Positions 35,550-44,895 of a stretch of DNA of 64,000 bases are shown one piece after another; position 1 is the stretch's first letter, and every line of letters begins with the position of its first letter. The notes under the pieces are model-generated. The model worked only from the letters and a program-made list of their open reading frames with translations. It had not been told where the DNA came from and did not search any database. The translations under genes and the position numbers were made by a program. The stretch is from Candidatus Binatia bacterium. Lineage in GTDB: Bacteria > Desulfobacterota > Binatia > UBA1149 > CAITLU01. The stretch lies in contig DASXOZ010000053.1 in the NCBI GenBank assembly GCA_036493895.1, positions 124,001-188,000 of the forward strand, given 5' to 3'.

Positions 35550-35566
35550 CGGATTTCGCCAATCCG
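35550..35566. promoter_or_regulatory. Candidate activator site (inverted repeat)
   Basis: CGGATT-N5-AATCCG is a perfect inverted repeat centred about 150 bp upstream of the sigma-54-type promoter. That is the usual place for the binding site of an NtrC-class activator. The link to the activator gene downstream is inference. Confidence 0.4.
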
Positions 35567-35704
35567 AGCACGGGTGGCGCGCCGTTCCCAGCGCCCTCGC
35601 CAGCTGTGTTGCAGATCGCACGACGCCCCGGCGGACAATCCTGCATCCTGCACGACCCGTCCGGGGAGGCTGCCGAAAACGCGTGAATTCCCGGTGCTCG
35701 CGCA

Positions 35705-35720
35705 TGGCACGCCGCCTGCT
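35705..35720 (+). promoter_or_regulatory. Sigma-54-type promoter upstream of the KimA operon
   Basis: TGGCACGCCGCCTGCT matches the -24/-12 consensus TGGCAC-R-N4-TTGC-W with a single difference (C for the first T of the -12 element), and keeps GG and GC ten bases apart. It lies just in front of the small membrane protein and the KimA gene. The operon encodes an NtrC-class activator, so autoregulation is plausible. Confidence 0.6.
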
Positions 35721-35731
35721 CCAGAGCCCGT

Positions 35732-36061
35732 GTGGCACCGTCCCATTCGACACCGGCTGCGCAAGGTCTGGCGGCCGCTCGCACGAGCAGCTGGCTCGCC
35801 GGCGCGCTGCTCGCGATGGTGGTCGCCGGATGGTGGAGCGGCCGCGAGCAACGCGGGCTGCTGTCGCTGCCGGCACCGATCCGGCGCGAAATCTACCTTC
35901 GCACGCTTTCGAGCGTCACCGCTTTGTGCACCGACCAGCGCGCCGCCGACGCCGTCGCTTCGCGCTGCCAGGACAGCGCCCGCTTCCTCGTCGAGTTTCC
36001 GGAATGCGACGAAGCCTGCCGCACCCTTGCGCGGCCCTTCCTGCCGGAGCCGACCCGCTAG
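35732..36061 (+). CDS. Small single-helix membrane protein, unknown function
   Basis: This possible 109-residue protein has one hydrophobic segment (SWLAGALLAMVVAGWW, about residues 20-35). The soluble part carries four cysteines (about residues 65-96) that could form disulfides if periplasmic. I do not recognise a family. It precedes the KimA-type gene by 31 bp in the same direction and lies directly behind the sigma-54-type promoter. The predicted transcription start falls next to the GTG used here, so a later start (for example ATG at 35815) is possible. Confidence 0.5.
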   Translation: MAPSHSTPAAQGLAAARTSSWLAGALLAMVVAGWWSGREQRGLLSLPAPIRREIYLRTLSSVTALCTDQRAADAVASRCQDSARFLVEFPECDEACRTLARPFLPEPTR

Positions 36062-36092
36062 ATGAGAAAATGAGAAAAGGAGAGAGCTTGCC

Positions 36093-38119
36093 GTGGGGAT
36101 GACCAACCAGAGTTTTACTGCGTCGCGCCTGCTGCGTGCCGTCATCGGCGACAAGAGGGAGATCGACGAGGGCGTGTTCCACAAGGTCTCGCTGGTGGCG
36201 TTCCTGGCCTGGGTGGGCCTCGGCGCCGACGGTCTGTCGTCGTCGGCCTACGGCCCCGAGGAAGCGTTCAAGGCCCTCGGCGGCGAGACCTACCTCGCGA
36301 TCATGCTCGCGCTCGCGACGACGCTGACGGTCGTCATCATCGCGTACTCGTACAGCCGCATCATCGAGCATTTTCCGCTGGGCGGCGGCGGGTACATCGT
36401 CGCGTCGCGACTTCTCGGAGCCGGCGCGGGCGTGACATCGGGATCGGCGCTCGTGATCGACTACGTTCTGACGATCTCGATCTCGATCGCGGCGGGCGGC
36501 GACGCGATCTTCAGCTTCCTGCACCCGGAGTGGAGCACCAAACTGGTCTTCGGGCTGTTCCCGCTGAAGCTTCCGATTGAATTTCTCGCCATCGTCGTGC
36601 TGATCCTGCTCAACCTGCGCGGGGTCAAGGAGTCGGTGACGGCGCTGGCGCCGATTTTCCTCACCTTCCTCGTCACGCATGCGATCCTGATCGTCGGCGT
36701 CATCCTCAGCCGCTCGGGCGAAATTCCGGTCGTCGTCGCCGGCGTGCGCGAAGGTTTCGCCCACGGGCTGCAGAGTCCGCCGCTCGGGCTCGGCGCAATC
36801 GGAATGATCGCGCTGTTCCTGCGCGCCTACTCGATGGGTGCCGGTACCTACACGGGCATCGAGGCCGTCTCCAACGGCCTTTCGATCATGCGCGAGCCGA
36901 AGGTACAGACCGGCCGCCGCACGATGGCGCTGATGGCCTCTTCGCTGGCGCTCACCGCCGGAGGGCTGATCGTCGCGTACCTTCTCGCGCACGTGATCCC
37001 GGTCGAAGGCAAGACGATGAACGCCGTTCTCGCCGAGAAGTTCAGCGAGGGCATGCACATCGGCGGTTTCTCGTACGGCACCGCGTTCGTGTTCGTCACG
37101 CTCGTCTCCGAGGCTGCGCTGCTCGTCGTCGCCGCGCAGGCCGGCTTCATCGACGGTCCGCGCGTGATGGCCAACATGGCCTCCGACTCGTTCCTCCCGC
37201 ACCGGTTCAGCCAGCTTTCCGACCGCCTGACGATGCACTACGGCGTGCTGCTGATGGGCGGCCTTTCCGCTGCCGCGCTCTGGTACACCAGTGGCGACGT
37301 CACGCACCTGGTCGTCATGTACTCGATCAACGTGTTCGTGACGTTCTCGTTGTCCCAGCTCGCGATGTGCCGCTTCTGGGTGCGCCACCGCAGCGACCAC
37401 GAGTTGTGGAGGCGGCGCCTGGGCGTGCACGTGATCGCGCTGGCGCTTTGCGTGTTCATCCTTTGCGCCACCGTCTACGTGAAGTTCGCCGAAGGCGGCT
37501 GGGTCACGCTGGGGCTTACCGCGGTGCTGATCGCCACCTGCTTCGTGATCCGGCGCCACTACCGCACCGTGCAGGGCGGGCTGAACCGGCTCGACGACAT
37601 CGTCGAGGCGCTGCCGACCACCTGCAACGGCCATACGCCGGAGCTGCAGCCGGAAGCGCCGACCGCAGTGCTGCTGGTCGGCTCCTACGCGGGACTCGGC
37701 ATCCACACGATGCTGTCAATCGAGAGGCTGTTCCCCCGCTATTTCAAGAACTACGTGTTCGTCGCGGTCGGGGTCATCGATTCGGCGTCGTTCACCAACG
37801 TGAGCGCCGTCGACGAAGTGCGCGAGCGCACGCAGACCGAGCTCGCGCGTTACGTCGAGCTGGCCAACCGCCTCGGGCTGGCTGCGCAGATGCGCATGGC
37901 CATCGACACCGAAGTGCTCGGTCCCGCGCTGCGCCTGTGCACCGACGTCCAGCGCGACTACCCGCGCTCGATCTTCTTTGCCGGCAAGCTCGTGTTCGAG
38001 CGGGAGCGCTGGTACCAGCGCCTGCTGCACAACGAGACGGCTTACCAGCTCCAGCGAAGCCTGCAGTTCGCCGGCCTGAACGCGATGGTGCTTCCGACCC
38101 GCGTGCTGGAGACCGCTGC

Positions 38120-38123
<4 letters not shown>
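36093..38123 (+). CDS. kimA: KimA-type potassium uptake permease (APC superfamily)
   Basis: The protein has 676 residues. About 12 membrane helices span residues 30-490, followed by a cytoplasmic alpha/beta domain (about 515-676) similar in position to the Usp-like domain of KimA. Diagnostic stretches include GADGLSSSAYGPEEAF (KimA: SSDALSSVAYGTEE), FPLGGGGYIVAS, ILLNLRGVKES and LSQLAMCRFW. KimA of Bacillus subtilis is a high-affinity K+/H+ symporter controlled by c-di-AMP. An amino-acid substrate cannot be excluded, but the KdpD-derived gene in the operon supports K+. The GTG start is favoured by AAGGAGAG about 9 bp upstream; ATG at 36099 is an alternative. The stop overlaps the next ATG (ATGA). 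Confidence 0.82.
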
Positions 38124-39661
<1,538 letters not shown>

Positions 39662-39700
39662 CGGCGGCGCTCGCGGCCGCCTGCAAGCAAAGCCTGCTCG

Positions 39701-41551
39701 ATGCTCGGACTGCGCCGCAAACTCACGCTCGCCTTCGGCGGCCTGCTCGCGCTGCTTCTCGTGCTCGGCGCGACCAGCATCGCGCTGCTCAACGAATACA
39801 GCTCGACGCTCGAGAGGATCTTCCGCGAGAACTACGACACCGTCCTTTATGCGCAGCACATGAAGGACTCGATCGACGTCCTCGACGGCCTGGCCGAGCG
39901 CTCGCTGTGGAACGAGAACACCGACGCATCGCAGGCACACGACGCGACCGATTCCTTCGAGCGCAACCTTGCCAGCGAGTTCGGCAACATCACGCTGCCG
40001 GGGGAGGCCGAAGCCGCCGACCAGCTCGGCGCCCAGTGGAAAACCTACCGCCAGAACCTCGAACGCCAGCTTGCCAGCGAGGATCCGGTGCCGGCCAGAC
40101 GCGAGGCTTACCGCACGGTGCTGCTTGTCCAGGCCCAGGCCGTCAAGGCGACGGCCCAGCACATCATCGACCTCAACCTTGCCAACATGGTCTCGGTCGA
40201 CGGCCAGGTACGTTCCCAGGCCGAGACGTCGCGCCGCGAGATGCTGGCGATCATGGGGCTGGCCGCACTGTTCGCCGTCGCGCTCACGGTGCTGATCGGA
40301 CGATCCATCCTCGATCCGCTTCGCGCACTGACTGCGTCGGTGCGCGAGATCGAGCGCGGCAATCTCGACCTGGCGGTGGCCGTTCCGTCGGGCGACGAGA
40401 TCGGCGAGCTGGCCGAGGCGTTCAACAACATGACGGCACGCCTGCGCGAGTTCCGCCGTTCCGACCGCGCGCGCCTGGCGCGCACCGAGCGCACGACGCT
40501 GCTGGCGCTCAACAGCTTTCCCGACGCCGTGGCGGTCGTCGGTCCCGACGGTCGCATCGAGATGGCCAACGAGACCGCCGAGCGCGAGTTCCAGCTCGCA
40601 CCCGGAGTGGACCTGGCGCGCTCGGAGAACAAGGCCCTGTGGAACATCGTCGGGCAGACGCTGGCGACCCAGCAGCCGTTCCGTCCGAGGGGCTACGAGT
40701 CGGCGATCGGAATCTTTCGCGAGACCGAGCGCTACTTTCAGCCTCAGGCGGTGCCGATCCTGTCGGAAGACAAGACGCTCGTCGGTGTGACGCTGGTGCT
40801 GAGCGACGTCACGAGCCTGCGCATTCTGGACATGATGAAGAGCGGCCTGTTGTCGGTCGTGTCGCACGAGCTCAAGACTCCGCTCACGTCGATCCGCATG
40901 GCCACGCACCTTCTGCTCGAAGGCAGGGTCGGACCGCTGACGGCACAGCAGGCCGACCTCCTGCAGGCGGCGCGCGAGGACGGCGACCGCCTGCACGGCA
41001 TCATCGACAACCTGCTCGACCTCGGGCGCCTGCAGTCGGGGCGCGGCCTTCTCGACCTGGAGCCGGTACCGGTGCAGAGCCTGGTCGAGGATGCGGTCGC
41101 CGAATTCGCGACCCGTTACCGCAGCCGCGGCGTGCAGCTCGAGGTTGGGTGCGCGCCGGATTCGGGCGCAGCGCTCGTCGATACCGGGCGCGTCCGTCAC
41201 GTCTTCGCGAACCTGCTGGAAAATGCGCTGCGCTTTACGCCCGGCGGCGGCCGCGTGTCGATCACTTCTTCGCGCAGCGGCGAGTTCGTCGAATTTGCCG
41301 TCGCCGACACTGGCAGCGGCATCGCACCCGAGGATCTCCCGCGCATTTTCGACCGCTTCTATCGCGCAGCCCACCAGGCCGCCCACAGCGGCGCGGGGCT
41401 CGGCCTGGCGATCGTCAAGGAGATCGTCGAGGCGCACGGCGGAACGATCTTCGTGCAAAGCGAGCCCGCGCGCGGCACAACGTTCCGCTTCTCGCTGCGG
41501 GCGGCCAGCTCAGCCGACGCCGCCGCGAGCCGGGGCGAAGCCGCATCGTGA
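39701..41551 (+). CDS. KinB-like sensor histidine kinase
   Basis: This 616-residue membrane kinase has helices at about 8-30 and 178-200 that frame a helical periplasmic sensor. HAMP (about 200-255) and a PAS domain (about 262-375) follow. The HisKA domain has LSVVSHELKTPLTSIRMA (His389), and the HATPase domain carries NLLENALRF, DTGSGI and GLGLAIV. The sensor-HAMP-PAS-kinase order and MKSGLLSVVSHELKTPLTS sequence resemble KinB of Pseudomonas, the partner of AlgB. It lies 39 bp behind the AlgB-like gene and 34 bp before the KdpD-derived gene. The signal is unknown; the operon suggests K+ or envelope status. Confidence 0.9.
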   Translation: MLGLRRKLTLAFGGLLALLLVLGATSIALLNEYSSTLERIFRENYDTVLYAQHMKDSIDVLDGLAERSLWNENTDASQAHDATDSFERNLASEFGNITLPGEAEAADQLGAQWKTYRQNLERQLASEDPVPARREAYRTVLLVQAQAVKATAQHIIDLNLANMVSVDGQVRSQAETSRREMLAIMGLAALFAVALTVLIGRSILDPLRALTASVREIERGNLDLAVAVPSGDEIGELAEAFNNMTARLREFRRSDRARLARTERTTLLALNSFPDAVAVVGPDGRIEMANETAEREFQLAPGVDLARSENKALWNIVGQTLATQQPFRPRGYESAIGIFRETERYFQPQAVPILSEDKTLVGVTLVLSDVTSLRILDMMKSGLLSVVSHELKTPLTSIRMATHLLLEGRVGPLTAQQADLLQAAREDGDRLHGIIDNLLDLGRLQSGRGLLDLEPVPVQSLVEDAVAEFATRYRSRGVQLEVGCAPDSGAALVDTGRVRHVFANLLENALRFTPGGGRVSITSSRSGEFVEFAVADTGSGIAPEDLPRIFDRFYRAAHQAAHSGAGLGLAIVKEIVEAHGGTIFVQSEPARGTTFRFSLRAASSADAAASRGEAAS

Positions 41552-41585
41552 GCCGGTCTTTCGTCGCCGGCCTGCCGGAACGGCA

Positions 41586-43217
41586 ATGAGCAGGGAACGA
41601 AGCGATCACTTCCTCGAGCTGATTCGCCGCGCGCACCGCGGCCGCCTCAAGGTCTATCTTGGCTACGGCCCCGGTGTCGGCAAAACCTGGCAGATGCTCG
41701 AGGAAGCGCACCGCCTGCGGCAGCAGGCCGTGGACGTCGTCGTCGGGTACGTCGAGACGCACGGACGCGACGACGTCGCCAGGCTCGCCGCCGGACTCGA
41801 GACGCTTGCGCGGCGCAAGGAAGACTACCGCGGCCTGGTGCTCGAGGAATTCGACGTCGAGGCGGCGCTCGCGAGAAAACCGGAAGTCGTGCTCGTCGAC
41901 GAGCTCGCGCACGCCAACCTTCCCGGAAGCCGCAATGCCAAGCGATACGAAGACGTCCAGGAGCTGCTCGCCGCCGGCATCCACGTGCTGACGACGCTGA
42001 ACGTCCAGCATCTCGAAAGCCTCTACGACACGGTCGAACGACTGGTCGGCATCAAGGTGCGCGAAAGGCTGCCCGACTCGGTGCTCGCCGACGCCGACGA
42101 AGTCGTCAACGTCGATCTTTCGCCGCAGGATCTTCGAAGGCGCGTCGCCGACGGCAAAGTCTATCCGCGCGGCGGCAGTGACGGCGAAACGGCCGGGCTT
42201 TTCGCAGAGACGAGCCTCGAGCGGCTTCGCGAGTTGACGATGCGGGAGATCGCATCCCAGATCGATTTCCGTCGCCGCGCAATCCCGCGCGCCGGCGAAG
42301 GATCCTCTCCCGACCAGATCATGGTCTGCCTCGGCACAGGCGCCGCCGCCAATGCGAGCCTGCTGCGCTTCGCGTCGCGCCTGGCCGGGCGCCTCAACCG
42401 CAACTGGTACGCGGTGCACGTGCAGGGCTCGGTTGACGCCGGCGAGGCGGCGGCGCGAGCGCTCGCCGACACGATGGTGCTGGCCAACGAGCTCGGCGCG
42501 ACCGTCTTCACGTTCCGCGGCGACAGCGTCGTCGATACCATCGTCCGCTTTGCCGGCGAATACCGCGTCGGCCAGATCGTCGTCGGCAGGTCGAGACAAT
42601 TGGCGTGGTGGCAGCACCGGCTCGGTCGCACGACGCTGTGCTCGGATCTGATCGAGCGCTCGGCCGGCTTCACCGTGGTCGTCGTCGACACCGATCGCGA
42701 CGAGCCTGTAGCGATCGAGGGCGACACCGCACCGACACGAAGCACGGCGGAATCGTCGCGACGCCTGTCGCAGCTTCTCGGCGAGAATCATATCGAGATC
42801 TTCGATCGACCGATGGCCACCGAGCAGGTGCTGAGAACCCTGCTCTCACGCATCGGGGCCGGACGCGCGCAGTGGAACGCCGACGAGGCGCTCGCGCGCC
42901 TTCACGAACGCGAAAGCCAGGGCTCGACGTTCCTGAACGAAGGCATCGCGCTTCCCCACGCCCGGCTCGATGGCCTCGCCGCTCCCGTAGCAGCGCTGGC
43001 CGTGACCAGGGCCGGAGTCAGCGACGTCGCGCGCGAGCACCCCATCGAGGTCGTCTTCCTTCTGCTGGCGCCCGCGACGCAGGCCCACGAGCACCTTCAA
43101 TGGATCGGCACGGCCGTACGCGTGTTCCGCAACGCGTCGGTGCGGCGGCGTCTGGCAGCAGCTGCCGGTCCCGGGGACGTGCTCCGGGCGCTCGAGGATG
43201 GAGAGCCGTTCACCTGA
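41586..43217 (+). CDS. N-KdpD - Usp - PTS EIIA(Ntr)-like fusion protein
   Basis: This 543-residue soluble protein has three parts. Residues 20-235 are the KdpD sensor domain, with Walker A GYGPGVGKT (26-34) and the DELAH box (Asp105-Glu106) followed by N-x-P-G-S-R-N-x-K-R. Residues about 245-370 are a Usp-like domain with GRSRQLAWWQHRLGRT near its end. Residues about 395-540 are a PTS EIIA type-2 (EIIA-Ntr-like) domain with the phospho-accepting His458 in GIALPHAR. The membrane and histidine-kinase parts of KdpD are missing. Usp and EIIA(Ntr) are both known to bind KdpD, so the fusion could act as a K+-status integrator for the neighbouring KimA permease or the AlgB-like regulator. Confidence 0.85.
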   Translation: MSRERSDHFLELIRRAHRGRLKVYLGYGPGVGKTWQMLEEAHRLRQQAVDVVVGYVETHGRDDVARLAAGLETLARRKEDYRGLVLEEFDVEAALARKPEVVLVDELAHANLPGSRNAKRYEDVQELLAAGIHVLTTLNVQHLESLYDTVERLVGIKVRERLPDSVLADADEVVNVDLSPQDLRRRVADGKVYPRGGSDGETAGLFAETSLERLRELTMREIASQIDFRRRAIPRAGEGSSPDQIMVCLGTGAAANASLLRFASRLAGRLNRNWYAVHVQGSVDAGEAAARALADTMVLANELGATVFTFRGDSVVDTIVRFAGEYRVGQIVVGRSRQLAWWQHRLGRTTLCSDLIERSAGFTVVVVDTDRDEPVAIEGDTAPTRSTAESSRRLSQLLGENHIEIFDRPMATEQVLRTLLSRIGAGRAQWNADEALARLHERESQGSTFLNEGIALPHARLDGLAAPVAALAVTRAGVSDVAREHPIEVVFLLLAPATQAHEHLQWIGTAVRVFRNASVRRRLAAAAGPGDVLRALEDGEPFT

Positions 43218-43246
43218 CGGCCAGGCCATGCCTGGCGGCCGTTTTT
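43217..43246 (+). terminator. Rho-independent terminator of the KimA operon
   Basis: Directly behind the stop of the KdpD-EIIA fusion gene, a 7 bp stem GCCAGGC-CAT-GCCTGGC (43220-43236) with extra pairing at its base is followed by TTTTT (43242-43246). It separates the kimA operon from the ammonium transporter gene. Confidence 0.8.
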
Positions 43247-43398: not shown

Positions 43399-44895
43399 AT
43401 GAAAGGAAGTTCGCGAGTTCTCTTCGTGGGCGGCAGCGCCTGCGCTCTCCTGCGGCCTCTTGCCGCTGTCACCGTCATCGCGGCCCTTGTCGGCGTCTTC
43501 GCGCCGGCGATCGCCTCGGCGGCCGACGCAGCGACGCGCTCCGACCCGACCATCGAGCAACGGGTGGCCGACCTCGAGGCCTACGTGAACAACGCCGCGC
43601 GCGGAGCCGACGCAACCAATGCGACGGTCGCGTCGAAGGTCTCCGGTTCCGGCCCCGGCCATAACGGCTGGATGATGACGTCGGCGGCACTGGTGCTGTT
43701 CATGACGCTGCCGGGGCTGGCGCTGTTCTACGGCGGCCTCGTGCGCACGAAGAACGTGCTGTCGGTGCTGGCCCAGTGTTTCGGCATTGCCGGCCTCGTG
43801 ACGATCCTTTGGTGGGCCTTCGGCTACAGCATGGTCTTCGACAGGGGCGGCGGCATCATCGGCGGCTTCTCCAAGATGTTCCTGCGAGGCGTGACGAGCG
43901 CACCCAATACCGACTACTCGTACTGGGTCTCCGAGAACGTCTTCGCGATGTACCAGATGATGTTCGCGATCATCACGCCGGCGCTGATCATCGGCGCGAT
44001 CGCCGAGCGCATGAAGTTCTCGGCAATCCTGCTGTTCGTCACGCTTTGGATGCTCGTCGTCTACTTCCCGCTGGCCCACATGGTCTGGGGTGTCACCGGG
44101 ATGATGAACGGCGTCTGGAACGCCGACGCCCCGATCAAGGCCATCGACTTCGCCGGCGGCACTGTCGTGCACATGTCGTCGGGATGGTCGGCGCTGATCC
44201 TGTGCCTGATCCTCGGGCCCCGCATCGGATTCCGCAAGGAGGCATTCGCGCCGCACAGCATGGTGATGTGCATGATCGGCACCGGGATGCTGTGGGTCGG
44301 CTGGTACGGCTTCAATGCAGGAAGCGCGGTGGCTGCCGACGGCGTTGCCGCCAACGCGTTCACGACCACGACGCTGGCAACGGCGGTCGCGTCGTTTACG
44401 TGGGCGATGGCCGAATACTTCGAGCGCGGCAAGCCCAGCGTGCTCGGCTTCTGTTCGGGTGCGGTGGCCGGCCTCGTCGTGATCACGCCGGCCTGCGGCT
44501 TCGTCACGCCCGGCTCGAGCGTCCTCATCGGCATCCTGGCCGGAATCGTTCCGTTCATCGCGTGCACGCGCATCAAGCACATATTCCAGTACGACGACGC
44601 GCTCGACACCTTCGGCGTGCACGCCGTCGGCGGAACTCTCGGCGCCTTCGTCACCGGAATCTTCGCGACTCCCGACGTCAACTCGAACCTCGCGACGAAC
44701 CTGTCGAAGATCGTCGGCAGCACGCTGTGGATGGAGCAGCTCAAGGCGATGGGCATCACGATCGTGATGGCCGTCGTCGGCACGGTGGTGATCGCCAACG
44801 TCGTGCGCGCGCTGGTCGGGCTCAGGCCGGAGACCGAGGTCGAGCGCCAGGGTCTCGACATCAGCGAACACGGCGAAGTGGGGTACAACTTCTGA
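43399..44895 (+). CDS. amt: Ammonium transporter
   Basis: The protein has 498 residues, longer than E. coli AmtB. The extra length is an N-terminal segment with a signal-like helix (18-45) and a short coiled region (TIEQRVADLEAYVNNAA) before the first Amt helix. Eleven membrane helices follow with AALVLFMTLPGLALFYGGLVR, VVHMSSGWSAL (first pore His) and FGVHAVGGTLGAF (second pore His). It conducts ammonium/ammonia across the inner membrane. No glnK lies beside it. Its position right after the K+/EIIA(Ntr) operon is notable, but a terminator separates the two and I find no sigma-54 promoter in front of it. Confidence 0.95.
   Translation: MKGSSRVLFVGGSACALLRPLAAVTVIAALVGVFAPAIASAADAATRSDPTIEQRVADLEAYVNNAARGADATNATVASKVSGSGPGHNGWMMTSAALVLFMTLPGLALFYGGLVRTKNVLSVLAQCFGIAGLVTILWWAFGYSMVFDRGGGIIGGFSKMFLRGVTSAPNTDYSYWVSENVFAMYQMMFAIITPALIIGAIAERMKFSAILLFVTLWMLVVYFPLAHMVWGVTGMMNGVWNADAPIKAIDFAGGTVVHMSSGWSALILCLILGPRIGFRKEAFAPHSMVMCMIGTGMLWVGWYGFNAGSAVAADGVAANAFTTTTLATAVASFTWAMAEYFERGKPSVLGFCSGAVAGLVVITPACGFVTPGSSVLIGILAGIVPFIACTRIKHIFQYDDALDTFGVHAVGGTLGAFVTGIFATPDVNSNLATNLSKIVGSTLWMEQLKAMGITIVMAVVGTVVIANVVRALVGLRPETEVERQGLDISEHGEVGYNF

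What the first reader, a model, noticed from the sequence alone, without database searches (positions are those of the whole stretch)
35550..43246. A self-contained potassium-uptake signalling island under sigma-54 control
Seen: a KimA-type permease, an AlgB-like NtrC-class activator, a KinB-like kinase and an N-KdpD-Usp-EIIA fusion lie in one rightward operon (ATGA overlap, then gaps of 39 and 34 bp) that ends in an intrinsic terminator. A near-consensus -24/-12 promoter (35705-35720) and a perfect inverted repeat 150 bp upstream precede it. Known: KimA imports K+, the KdpD N-domain and EIIA(Ntr) both take part in K+ control, and NtrC-class proteins act at sigma-54 promoters. Inference: the operon senses K+/PTS status and autoregulates, a Kdp-independent K+ system I do not know to be described.
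Basis: partly seen in the sequence, partly recalled or inferred. Interest (0 to 1): 0.8.

Follow-up and report, generated by a model that had tools for sequence, protein, structure and literature searches.

The report
Sigma-54 potassium importer operon, Kdp-derived
This is a bacterial operon in which a known switch for a potassium pump appears to have been re-wired to a different, proton-driven potassium importer, with a protein that joins a potassium-control kinase domain to a nutrient-signal (PTS) domain.

Summary
The transporter matches KimA (6s3k, E 2e-50); all ten ion-path residues tested are kept. The NtrC-type regulator, histidine kinase and KdpD-Usp-EIIA fusion are not a new Kdp-independent design. 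They are the module that elsewhere sits with kdpFABC: 27 of 28 full-length fusions examined elsewhere have kdp genes next door (the 28th starts at a contig edge). In Desulfovibrio vulgaris the counterpart (DVU3334-3336) targets its own kdp operon (PMC3333781). Here kdpFABC is absent from the operon and kimA stands in front; one genome has kimA-RR-HK-kdpABC-KdpD-EIIA, an intermediate. The -24/-12 site is the best in the window, and most relatives examined carry one before the kinase or kdpA. I found what is probably the activator's operator: two TTGCA-N3-TGCAA-like boxes 32 bp apart (35609, 35641), conserved in relatives and the only such pair found in the 4.5-Mb genome. Trees show a mosaic. 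The genome lacks a c-di-AMP cyclase and keeps a separate kdp locus. A new variant of a known kind; fusion and KimA version seem undescribed in the library searched.

The parts
35609..35621 (.). upstream operator box 1 of the activator (TTGCA-N3-TGCAA type, 8 of 10)
   Evidence: pairs 31-32 bp apart are conserved in relatives
35641..35653 (.). upstream operator box 2 (8 of 10), exactly 32 bp from box 1
35705..35720 (+). sigma-54 (-24/-12) promoter TGGCACGCCGCCTGCT; predicted start of transcription near 35731
35732..36061 (+). orf0: small protein with a hydrophobic stretch and four conserved Cys; start codon uncertain
   Evidence: homologues before kimA in L106 and between regulator and kdpA in L168
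36093..38123 (+). kimA-like K+/H+ symporter (GTG 36093 or ATG 36099)
38267..39661 (+). NtrC-class response regulator (REC, AAA+ sigma-54 activator with GAFTSA, Fis-type HTH); start 38267 or 38279 rather than 38120
39701..41551 (+). membrane histidine kinase (N-terminal sensory region, HAMP, PAS, HisKA, HATPase)
41586..43217 (+). KdpD(N)-Usp-EIIA fusion protein, 543 aa
41634..42263 (+). KdpD N-domain (residues 17-226) with all seven tested serine-kinase residues of E. coli KdpD
42315..42686 (+). Usp domain (about residues 244-367), E. coli type (RXXXR-X8-WXAV), without the S. aureus c-di-AMP motif
42777..43196 (+). EIIA domain of the Ntr type (residues 398-537), phospho-acceptor candidate His458
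43216..43246 (+). intrinsic terminator-like hairpin and T run

Best explanation
It is an autoregulated K+-uptake operon made by re-using the sigma-54 Kdp regulatory module on a KimA-type K+/H+ symporter. Inferred working: when K+ is short the membrane kinase phosphorylates the NtrC-type regulator; it binds the two boxes at 35609 and 35641 and drives sigma-54 polymerase at 35705-35720; orf0, kimA and the regulators are transcribed together, so the response feeds itself, and KimA brings in K+ with H+. The soluble KdpD(N)-Usp-EIIA protein is the brake and signal input: its KdpD domain is a potential serine kinase (E. coli KdpD phosphorylates Ser162 of KdpB this way), acting here on the KdpB made from the separate kdp locus or on KimA, while its EIIA domain reads the phosphorylation state of the nitrogen PTS and tunes the kinase, a tethered version of the known PtsN-KdpD contact. 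Shown here by sequence: domain make-up, kept active residues, promoter and operator conservation, kdp linkage in relatives. Inferred: signal, direction of control, targets of the KdpD domain, co-transcription.
For: KimA homology, and all ten tested residues identical in 34 of 34 homologues including the window. In 27 of 28 full-length fusions elsewhere kdp genes lie next door. G186 has kimA-RR-HK-kdpABC-KdpDN-EIIA on one strand, with box pairs before kimA and between RR and HK. -24/-12 sites at or above the background 99th percentile lie within 120 bp upstream of HK in 22 of 27 loci (one record counted twice) and upstream of kdpA in 10 of 15 class relatives, but in 0 of 29 kdpA loci of a control group. 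Boxes at 9 of 10 or better in 18 of 20 kinase-type regions against a shuffle mean of 0.145. The window's box pair is the only exact hit to a pair pattern in the genome (pattern written after seeing the window). D. vulgaris DVU3334 regulates its own kdp operon with a split sensor.
Against: The exact order without kdp was seen only here. The HK-KdpDN-regulator triad follows TRAP-transporter genes in genomes of one genus (L224 and L228), so the module is not tied to K+ everywhere. The regulator has GAFTSA instead of GAFTGA. The kdpA regions of L094 and L097, near in the regulator tree, have no box at 8 of 10; among the 14 kdpA-type regions only 2 reach 9 of 10, no more than the best of 200 shuffles. 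Most kimA genes elsewhere lack the promoter: 3 of 44 rows reach the 99th percentile, the window and one locus held twice. The window's boxes are 8 of 10 each. The KdpD part sits on a long branch (1.14), which may mean relaxed constraint. No expression or transport data exist.
Confidence: 0.62

Rival explanations
1. The permease carries another substrate (amino acid or other cation), and the KdpD-EIIA regulator reports nitrogen status through the PTS; amtB directly downstream would fit a nitrogen role.
For: Pfam calls it AA_permease_2; amtB follows at 43399; EIIA is of the Ntr type; a TRAP transporter sits with the same triad in one genus.
Against: The only PDB match at E 0.01 is KimA, and every tested K+ and H+ residue is kept in 34 of 34; a terminator-like hairpin separates amtB; the module sits with kdpFABC in nearly all full-fusion relatives seen.
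Confidence: 0.08
2. KimA is an ordinary K+ importer here, but the KdpD-Usp-EIIA protein serves the separate kdp locus (C17), silencing KdpB by serine phosphorylation; the operon is then a switch between the two K+ systems rather than a self-contained island.
For: All seven tested serine-kinase residues are kept and the genome's KdpB has the TGES motif; KdpD phosphorylates KdpB Ser162 in E. coli.
Against: The kdp locus has its own full KdpD with the same domain; it shows no box pair 30-33 bp apart and no -24/-12 site above 11.2, so no shared control is visible.
Confidence: 0.2
3. The operon is a decaying remnant of a transferred kdp cluster that lost its pump; the regulators no longer work together.
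For: Long KdpD branch and mixed origins; GAFTSA variant; no KdpD-domain match in the one congener, five family mates and six order mates searched.
Against: All frames are open, the tested active residues are kept, and the promoter with both boxes stands in register with relatives.
Confidence: 0.08

Closest known systems
D. vulgaris DVU3334-DVU3339 (sigma-54 regulator, split KdpD/HK, kdpFABC; Rajeev et al. 2011, PMC3333781, passages read)
   Same: sigma-54 response regulator, separate histidine kinase, separate KdpD-Usp protein, autoregulated K+-uptake operon with an upstream motif
   Different: there the transporter is KdpFABC and no EIIA is described in the KdpD-Usp protein; here the transporter is KimA and EIIA is fused. 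The letters of the DVU3334 motif were not seen
Bacillus subtilis KimA (PMC6994465, PMC10284832, passages read)
   Same: family, K+ and H+ residues, H579 and N580 of the c-di-AMP pocket
   Different: no c-di-AMP cyclase found in this genome; Arg337 is His and Gln581 is Glu; a sigma-54 promoter, and no Rfam match at gathering score in the window, so no c-di-AMP riboswitch seen
Short KdpD/Usp proteins without kinase core (NF038185, matched below its cut-off; PMC11018627, passages read)
   Same: KdpD N-domain plus Usp, atypical serine-kinase residues
   Different: extra EIIA(Ntr) domain; Usp of the E. coli type; no pump in the operon
ptsN copy inside kdp operons and PtsN-KdpD binding (review PMC13104625, passages read)
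   Same: EIIA(Ntr) tied to KdpD; the genome's own kdp locus also has an EIIA gene before kdpD
   Different: here the two are fused in one protein, without a histidine-kinase core
Acidihalobacter aeolianus kdp cluster (PMC9062700, passages read)
   Same: a sigma-54 regulator is reported in the same genomic context as kdp
   Different: gene arrangement said to be like that of E. coli, with KdpD and KdpE; no KimA mentioned in the passages seen

Membership tests
KimA (KUP family) K+/H+ symporter | sequence homology to solved KimA | tested here: met
   6s3k E 2e-50, the only PDB hit at 0.01
KimA (KUP family) K+/H+ symporter | ion and proton residues D36, Y43, D117, Y118, T121, S125, T230, E233, N237, Y377 | tested here: met
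   all identical, 34 of 34 homologues
KimA (KUP family) K+/H+ symporter | transports K+ with H+ | not testable with these tools
   no assay
KimA c-di-AMP regulation | diadenylate cyclase in the genome | tested here: not met
   PF02457: 0 in G000; found in 1 of 12 other genomes of the order
sigma-54 Kdp regulatory system (DVU3334 type) | sigma-54 response regulator, separate HK and KdpD-Usp protein in one cluster | tested here: met
sigma-54 Kdp regulatory system (DVU3334 type) | kdpFABC in the same operon | tested here: not met
   kimA instead; kdp is on another contig, C17
sigma-54 Kdp regulatory system (DVU3334 type) | same operator motif as DVU3334 | not tested
   the motif is in a figure and supplement that were not read
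KdpDE two-component system | KdpD with its own histidine-kinase core | tested here: not met
   543 aa, no HisKA or HATPase match
KdpDE two-component system | OmpR-type regulator KdpE | tested here: not met
   the regulator is NtrC class
KdpD atypical serine kinase | Walker A GKT, W39, D109, E110, R190 | tested here: met
   all identical to E. coli KdpD
KdpD atypical serine kinase | phosphorylates KdpB Ser162 | not testable with these tools
   the genome's KdpB keeps TGES
c-di-AMP-binding Usp domain (S. aureus KdpD) | SXS-X20-FTAXY motif | tested here: not met
   window has R-FAS-R-X8-WYAVH, the E. coli pattern RXXXR-X8-WXAVY except for the last residue
EIIA(Ntr) | fold and phosphorylatable His | tested here: met
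   best PDB hits of that stretch are IIA-Ntr by sequence and fold; His458 in 9 of 9

The most novel reading that the evidence does not exclude
A tethered PTS-KdpD serine kinase controls a proton-coupled K+ importer in a lineage without a detectable c-di-AMP cyclase: the KdpD(N)-Usp-EIIA protein phosphorylates KimA (not only KdpB) or gates the kinase according to nitrogen-PTS state, so that the EIIA domain does the job that c-di-AMP does in Bacillus. More broadly, the sigma-54/KdpD(N) module is a transferable promoter-plus-sensor cassette that can swap transporters (Kdp, KimA, TRAP).
Probability: 0.25. Interest if true: 0.78.

Novelty: new variant of a known kind. Interest (0 to 1): 0.58.

Why it matters
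It suggests that a K+ pump was replaced by a K+ symporter under the same switch, with DNA sites that show the kinship, and reveals a KdpD-Usp-EIIA fusion found in several phyla that gives a direct handle on an open question: how nitrogen-PTS state is passed to K+ uptake. The operator pair offers a way to predict regulon members from sequence.

Tried and rejected
The idea that EIIA fusions replace c-di-AMP in general: rejected, since 7 of the 8 fusion genomes L033-L040 have a cyclase; the absence concerns the window's order. A broad regulon: the pair pattern gave one exact hit in the genome; with up to 2 mismatches 6 forward and 5 reverse against 3 and 6 for the reversed control. The genome's own kdp locus as a target of the regulator: no pair 30-33 bp apart; best -24/-12 score 11.2, just before kdpA; but two boxes 21 bp apart (8 and 9 of 10) lie 140-165 bp before the DUF4118-GAF gene there, so a link is not excluded. 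Foreign base composition: none seen. Usp in the window alone is weak in Pfam (E 0.14); supported by 7 of 9 members and by a fold match to 7ji4, though the model is of modest confidence (pLDDT 63.5). Attempt to name the host: not possible beyond phylum; G445:C2 has the exact length of Desulforhabdus record NZ_BQXM01000002.1, so the window's phylum seems to be that of Desulforhabdus. The names AlgB-like and KinB-like were not tested separately; the best NCBIfam models (AtoC, PnpS) are far below cut-off.
Full report
WHAT IS THERE. The ORFs claimed are present. The permease has AA_permease_2 (E 1.8e-16) and one PDB match at E 0.01, KimA 6s3k (2.1e-50). The regulator has REC, sigma-54 activator and Fis-type HTH domains; the kinase has HAMP, PAS, HisKA and HATPase; the last protein has the KdpD domain (E 1.4e-84) and PTS_EIIA_2 (4.8e-17). 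Its middle part is Usp: weak in the window (E 0.14), found in 7 of 9 aligned fusions, and the predicted model matches the KdpD domain 2r8r, IIA-Ntr 1a6j and the KdpD Usp domain 7ji4 (mean pLDDT 63.5). A terminator-like hairpin follows, then amtB. No Rfam family reaches its gathering score in the window.

CORRECTIONS TO THE ANATOMY. The regulator probably does not start at 38120: nearly all relatives align from residue 59-73 of that frame (L099 alone from residue 1), and the extension lacks the GC pattern of coding DNA (0.79/0.67/0.80 against 0.74/0.50/0.88 for the whole frame). A small gene, orf0, lies between promoter and kimA; homologues stand before kimA in L106 (held twice, also L123) and between a regulator and kdpA in L168 (E 1e-7 and 3e-7), with four shared Cys. 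Its start is uncertain, because the predicted transcription start (about 35731) is one base before the GTG.

THE TRANSPORTER IS A K+ TRANSPORTER BY SEQUENCE. Residues that PMC6994465 and PMC10284832 (passages read) discuss for K+ binding, gating, H+ coupling and inhibition (D36, Y43, D117, Y118, T121, S125, T230, E233, N237, Y377) are identical in 34 of 34 homologues including the window. Of the c-di-AMP pocket, H579 and N580 are kept in 34 of 34; R337 is His in 24 of 34, the window among them, and Q581 is Glu in 3 of 34, the window among them.

THE MODULE ELSEWHERE. A scan of named genomes with the fusion protein gave 60 loci; L033-L040 match over the full length. A draw of 395 genomes of the phylum, the window's own included, gave 27 genomes at 1e-105: the window's, 20 others with full-length fusions (L203-L222), and 6 with the KdpD part only. 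Of these 28 full-length fusions, 27 have kdp genes next door: 26 directly upstream (in L206, L210 and L214 only kdpC fits on the contig) and L208, where kdpA follows. L033 has only 206 bases upstream and no kdp match on its 9-kb contig. Where the kinase is on the contig the usual order is regulator-kinase-kdpABC-KdpDN-EIIA; L034 has the kinase last. In the window's class (148 genomes searched) no other full fusion was seen at 1e-60; 54 genomes have a KdpD match and 62 a KimA match. By my count of those tables 41 genomes have both, and in 5 of them (G000, G052, G097, G055, G132) the two lie within 10 kb on one contig. In a second set of 37 genomes, 15 have KimA, and in 3 (G000, G186, G471) it lies beside the module. 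G186 (L218) reads kimA-regulator-kinase-kdpABC-KdpDN-EIIA on one strand: the window's order plus the pump. KimA also lies next to kdpA in L172 and L089 (28% identity).

PROMOTER. With a recalled matrix, 35705-35720 scores 17.0 of 19.5, the best of both strands of the window; next 13.8. In relatives a site at or above the background 99th percentile lies within 120 bp upstream of the kinase in 22 of 27 loci, 20 of these 39-48 bp before its start (L041 and L226 are the same record, so 21 of 26 distinct); upstream of kdpA in 10 of 15 class relatives; but in 0 of 29 kdpA loci of a control group (within L049-L092: Acidobacteria, Nocardia, Bacillota and others, beside which at most the receiver part of our regulator finds a match). 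Upstream of kimA 3 of 44 rows reach it, the window and one locus held twice; L218 scores 12.7, just below 13.1. G000 has one rpoN, followed about 1.1 kb on by a ptsN-like frame, and an enzyme I gene.

OPERATOR. An unbiased dyad count in 36 upstream regions gave TTGC-N5-GCAA (and TGCA-N3-TGCA) in 14, against at most 4 for any dyad in five shuffles. As TTGCA-N3-TGCAA it occurs at 9 of 10 or better in 18 of 20 kinase-type regions (mean of 200 shuffles 0.145, maximum 2) and at 8 of 10 or better in 11 of 14 kdpA-type regions (mean 0.71, maximum 4); only 2 of these 14 reach 9, equal to the shuffle maximum. In random 220-bp stretches of the same loci 6.1% have a site at 8 and 1.4% at 9. It comes as a pair 31-32 bp apart: 32 pairs in 1.84 Mb, in 28 of 116 loci; 29 of the 32 lie within 900 bp upstream of a kinase, kdpA or kimA gene, 20 of them 142-167 bp before the kinase (the Desulforhabdus record counts twice). 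Fifteen kinase- or fusion-type loci lack a pair: 11 do not hold the module's kinase and its upstream region, while L043, L045, L220 and L221 do and still lack it. The window has the pair at 35609 and 35641 (each 8 of 10, 32 bp apart), the only pair at that threshold in the window. A pair pattern relaxed to suit relatives and window gave 0 hits in 100 shuffles of the window and 1 exact hit in the 4.5-Mb genome. L218 has one pair before kimA and one between regulator and kinase. So the window's promoter region is probably homologous to the kdp promoters of the relatives.

MOSAIC ORIGIN. In trees the window's regulator lies inside the class clade (8 rows, 100/99), its kinase with four phylum-type rows (5 rows, 100/99), and its KdpD part inside the fusion-type clade (37 rows, 100/100) on a long branch of 1.14 (part of the kinase tree was cut from the output). 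The operon was therefore probably assembled from parts of different descent; the congener G001 has neither KimA nor KdpDN at the thresholds used.

SIGNALS. The KdpD domain of E. coli KdpD is an atypical serine kinase that inhibits the pump through KdpB Ser162, and a short KdpD/Usp form is stimulated by c-di-AMP (PMC11018627, passages read). All seven tested kinase residues are intact here and the genome's KdpB has TGES. But no diadenylate cyclase was found in G000 nor in 11 of 12 other genomes of the order, while 22 of 24 other genomes with the KdpD part have one. The Usp domain follows the E. coli and not the S. aureus motif. The EIIA domain is of the Ntr type with an invariant His. PtsN is known to bind KdpD, and ptsN copies occur in kdp operons (review PMC13104625, passages read); G000's own kdp locus carries an EIIA gene before kdpD. 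I therefore read the fusion as a built-in PtsN-KdpD contact; this step is inference.

RESULTS AGAINST. The triad follows DctP-DctQ-DctM genes in one genus: seen in L224 (named by Pfam) and, by like ORFs, in L228; L227 is too short to show it. The regulator has GAFTSA; among the rows printed only L104 shares this. L094 and L097, whose regulators are near the window's, lack boxes at 8 of 10 before kdpA. The strict order was seen in this genome only. The terminator and the TGGCAC pattern are modest statistically.

PRIOR ART. Rajeev et al. 2011 (passages read): DVU3334 regulates its own kdpFABC operon, the sensor being split into DVU3336 (K+ sensor and UspA) and DVU3335; S. fumaroxidans has the ortholog and motif. 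Kazakov et al. 2015 (PMC4641369, passages) list DVU3334 for potassium uptake. A sigma-54 regulator beside kdp is also reported in Acidihalobacter (PMC9062700, passages). In the held library I found no paper on a KimA version or on a KdpD-EIIA fusion (searches; listings only, apart from the papers named). Hence: known kind, new variant.

Noticed in passing
L093 4735-15403 (G000:C17): The genome's own kdp locus runs DUF4118-GAF protein, kdpF-like frames, kdpA, kdpC, kdpB (C before B), EIIA, kdpD: an unusual order with a free EIIA gene before kdpD. Two operator-like boxes 21 bp apart lie before its first gene (4572, 4593).
   Followed up: partly
L224 3122-8225, L228 3632-8612; L227 1999-3903: In one genus the HK-KdpDN-regulator triad follows TRAP-transporter genes (DctP, DctQ, DctM; seen in L224 and L228), with the tandem boxes before the kinase in all three loci.
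   Followed up: partly
window 35732-36061; L106 15903-16160; L168 14651-14860 (-): A small uncharacterised protein with four conserved Cys; the window copy has no Pfam or NCBIfam match. It recurs beside K+ transporter genes in two other loci.
   Followed up: partly
L212 4742-5398, L207 2383-3183, L218 13740-14600: An extra open frame of about 220-270 codons sits between regulator and kinase, with the box pair at or before its 5' part, in three genomes of one family (f43).
   Followed up: no
G001-G012 against other genomes of the class: The window's order seems to have lost diadenylate cyclase (found in 1 of 12 genomes, G011), although KimA is present in some members (G002, G006).
   Followed up: partly
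L042 10569, L037 5441: Further box pairs away from known K+ genes; possible extra targets of the regulator, or chance.
   Followed up: no
window 43399-44895: An ammonium transporter gene stands directly behind the terminator of the operon.
   Followed up: no
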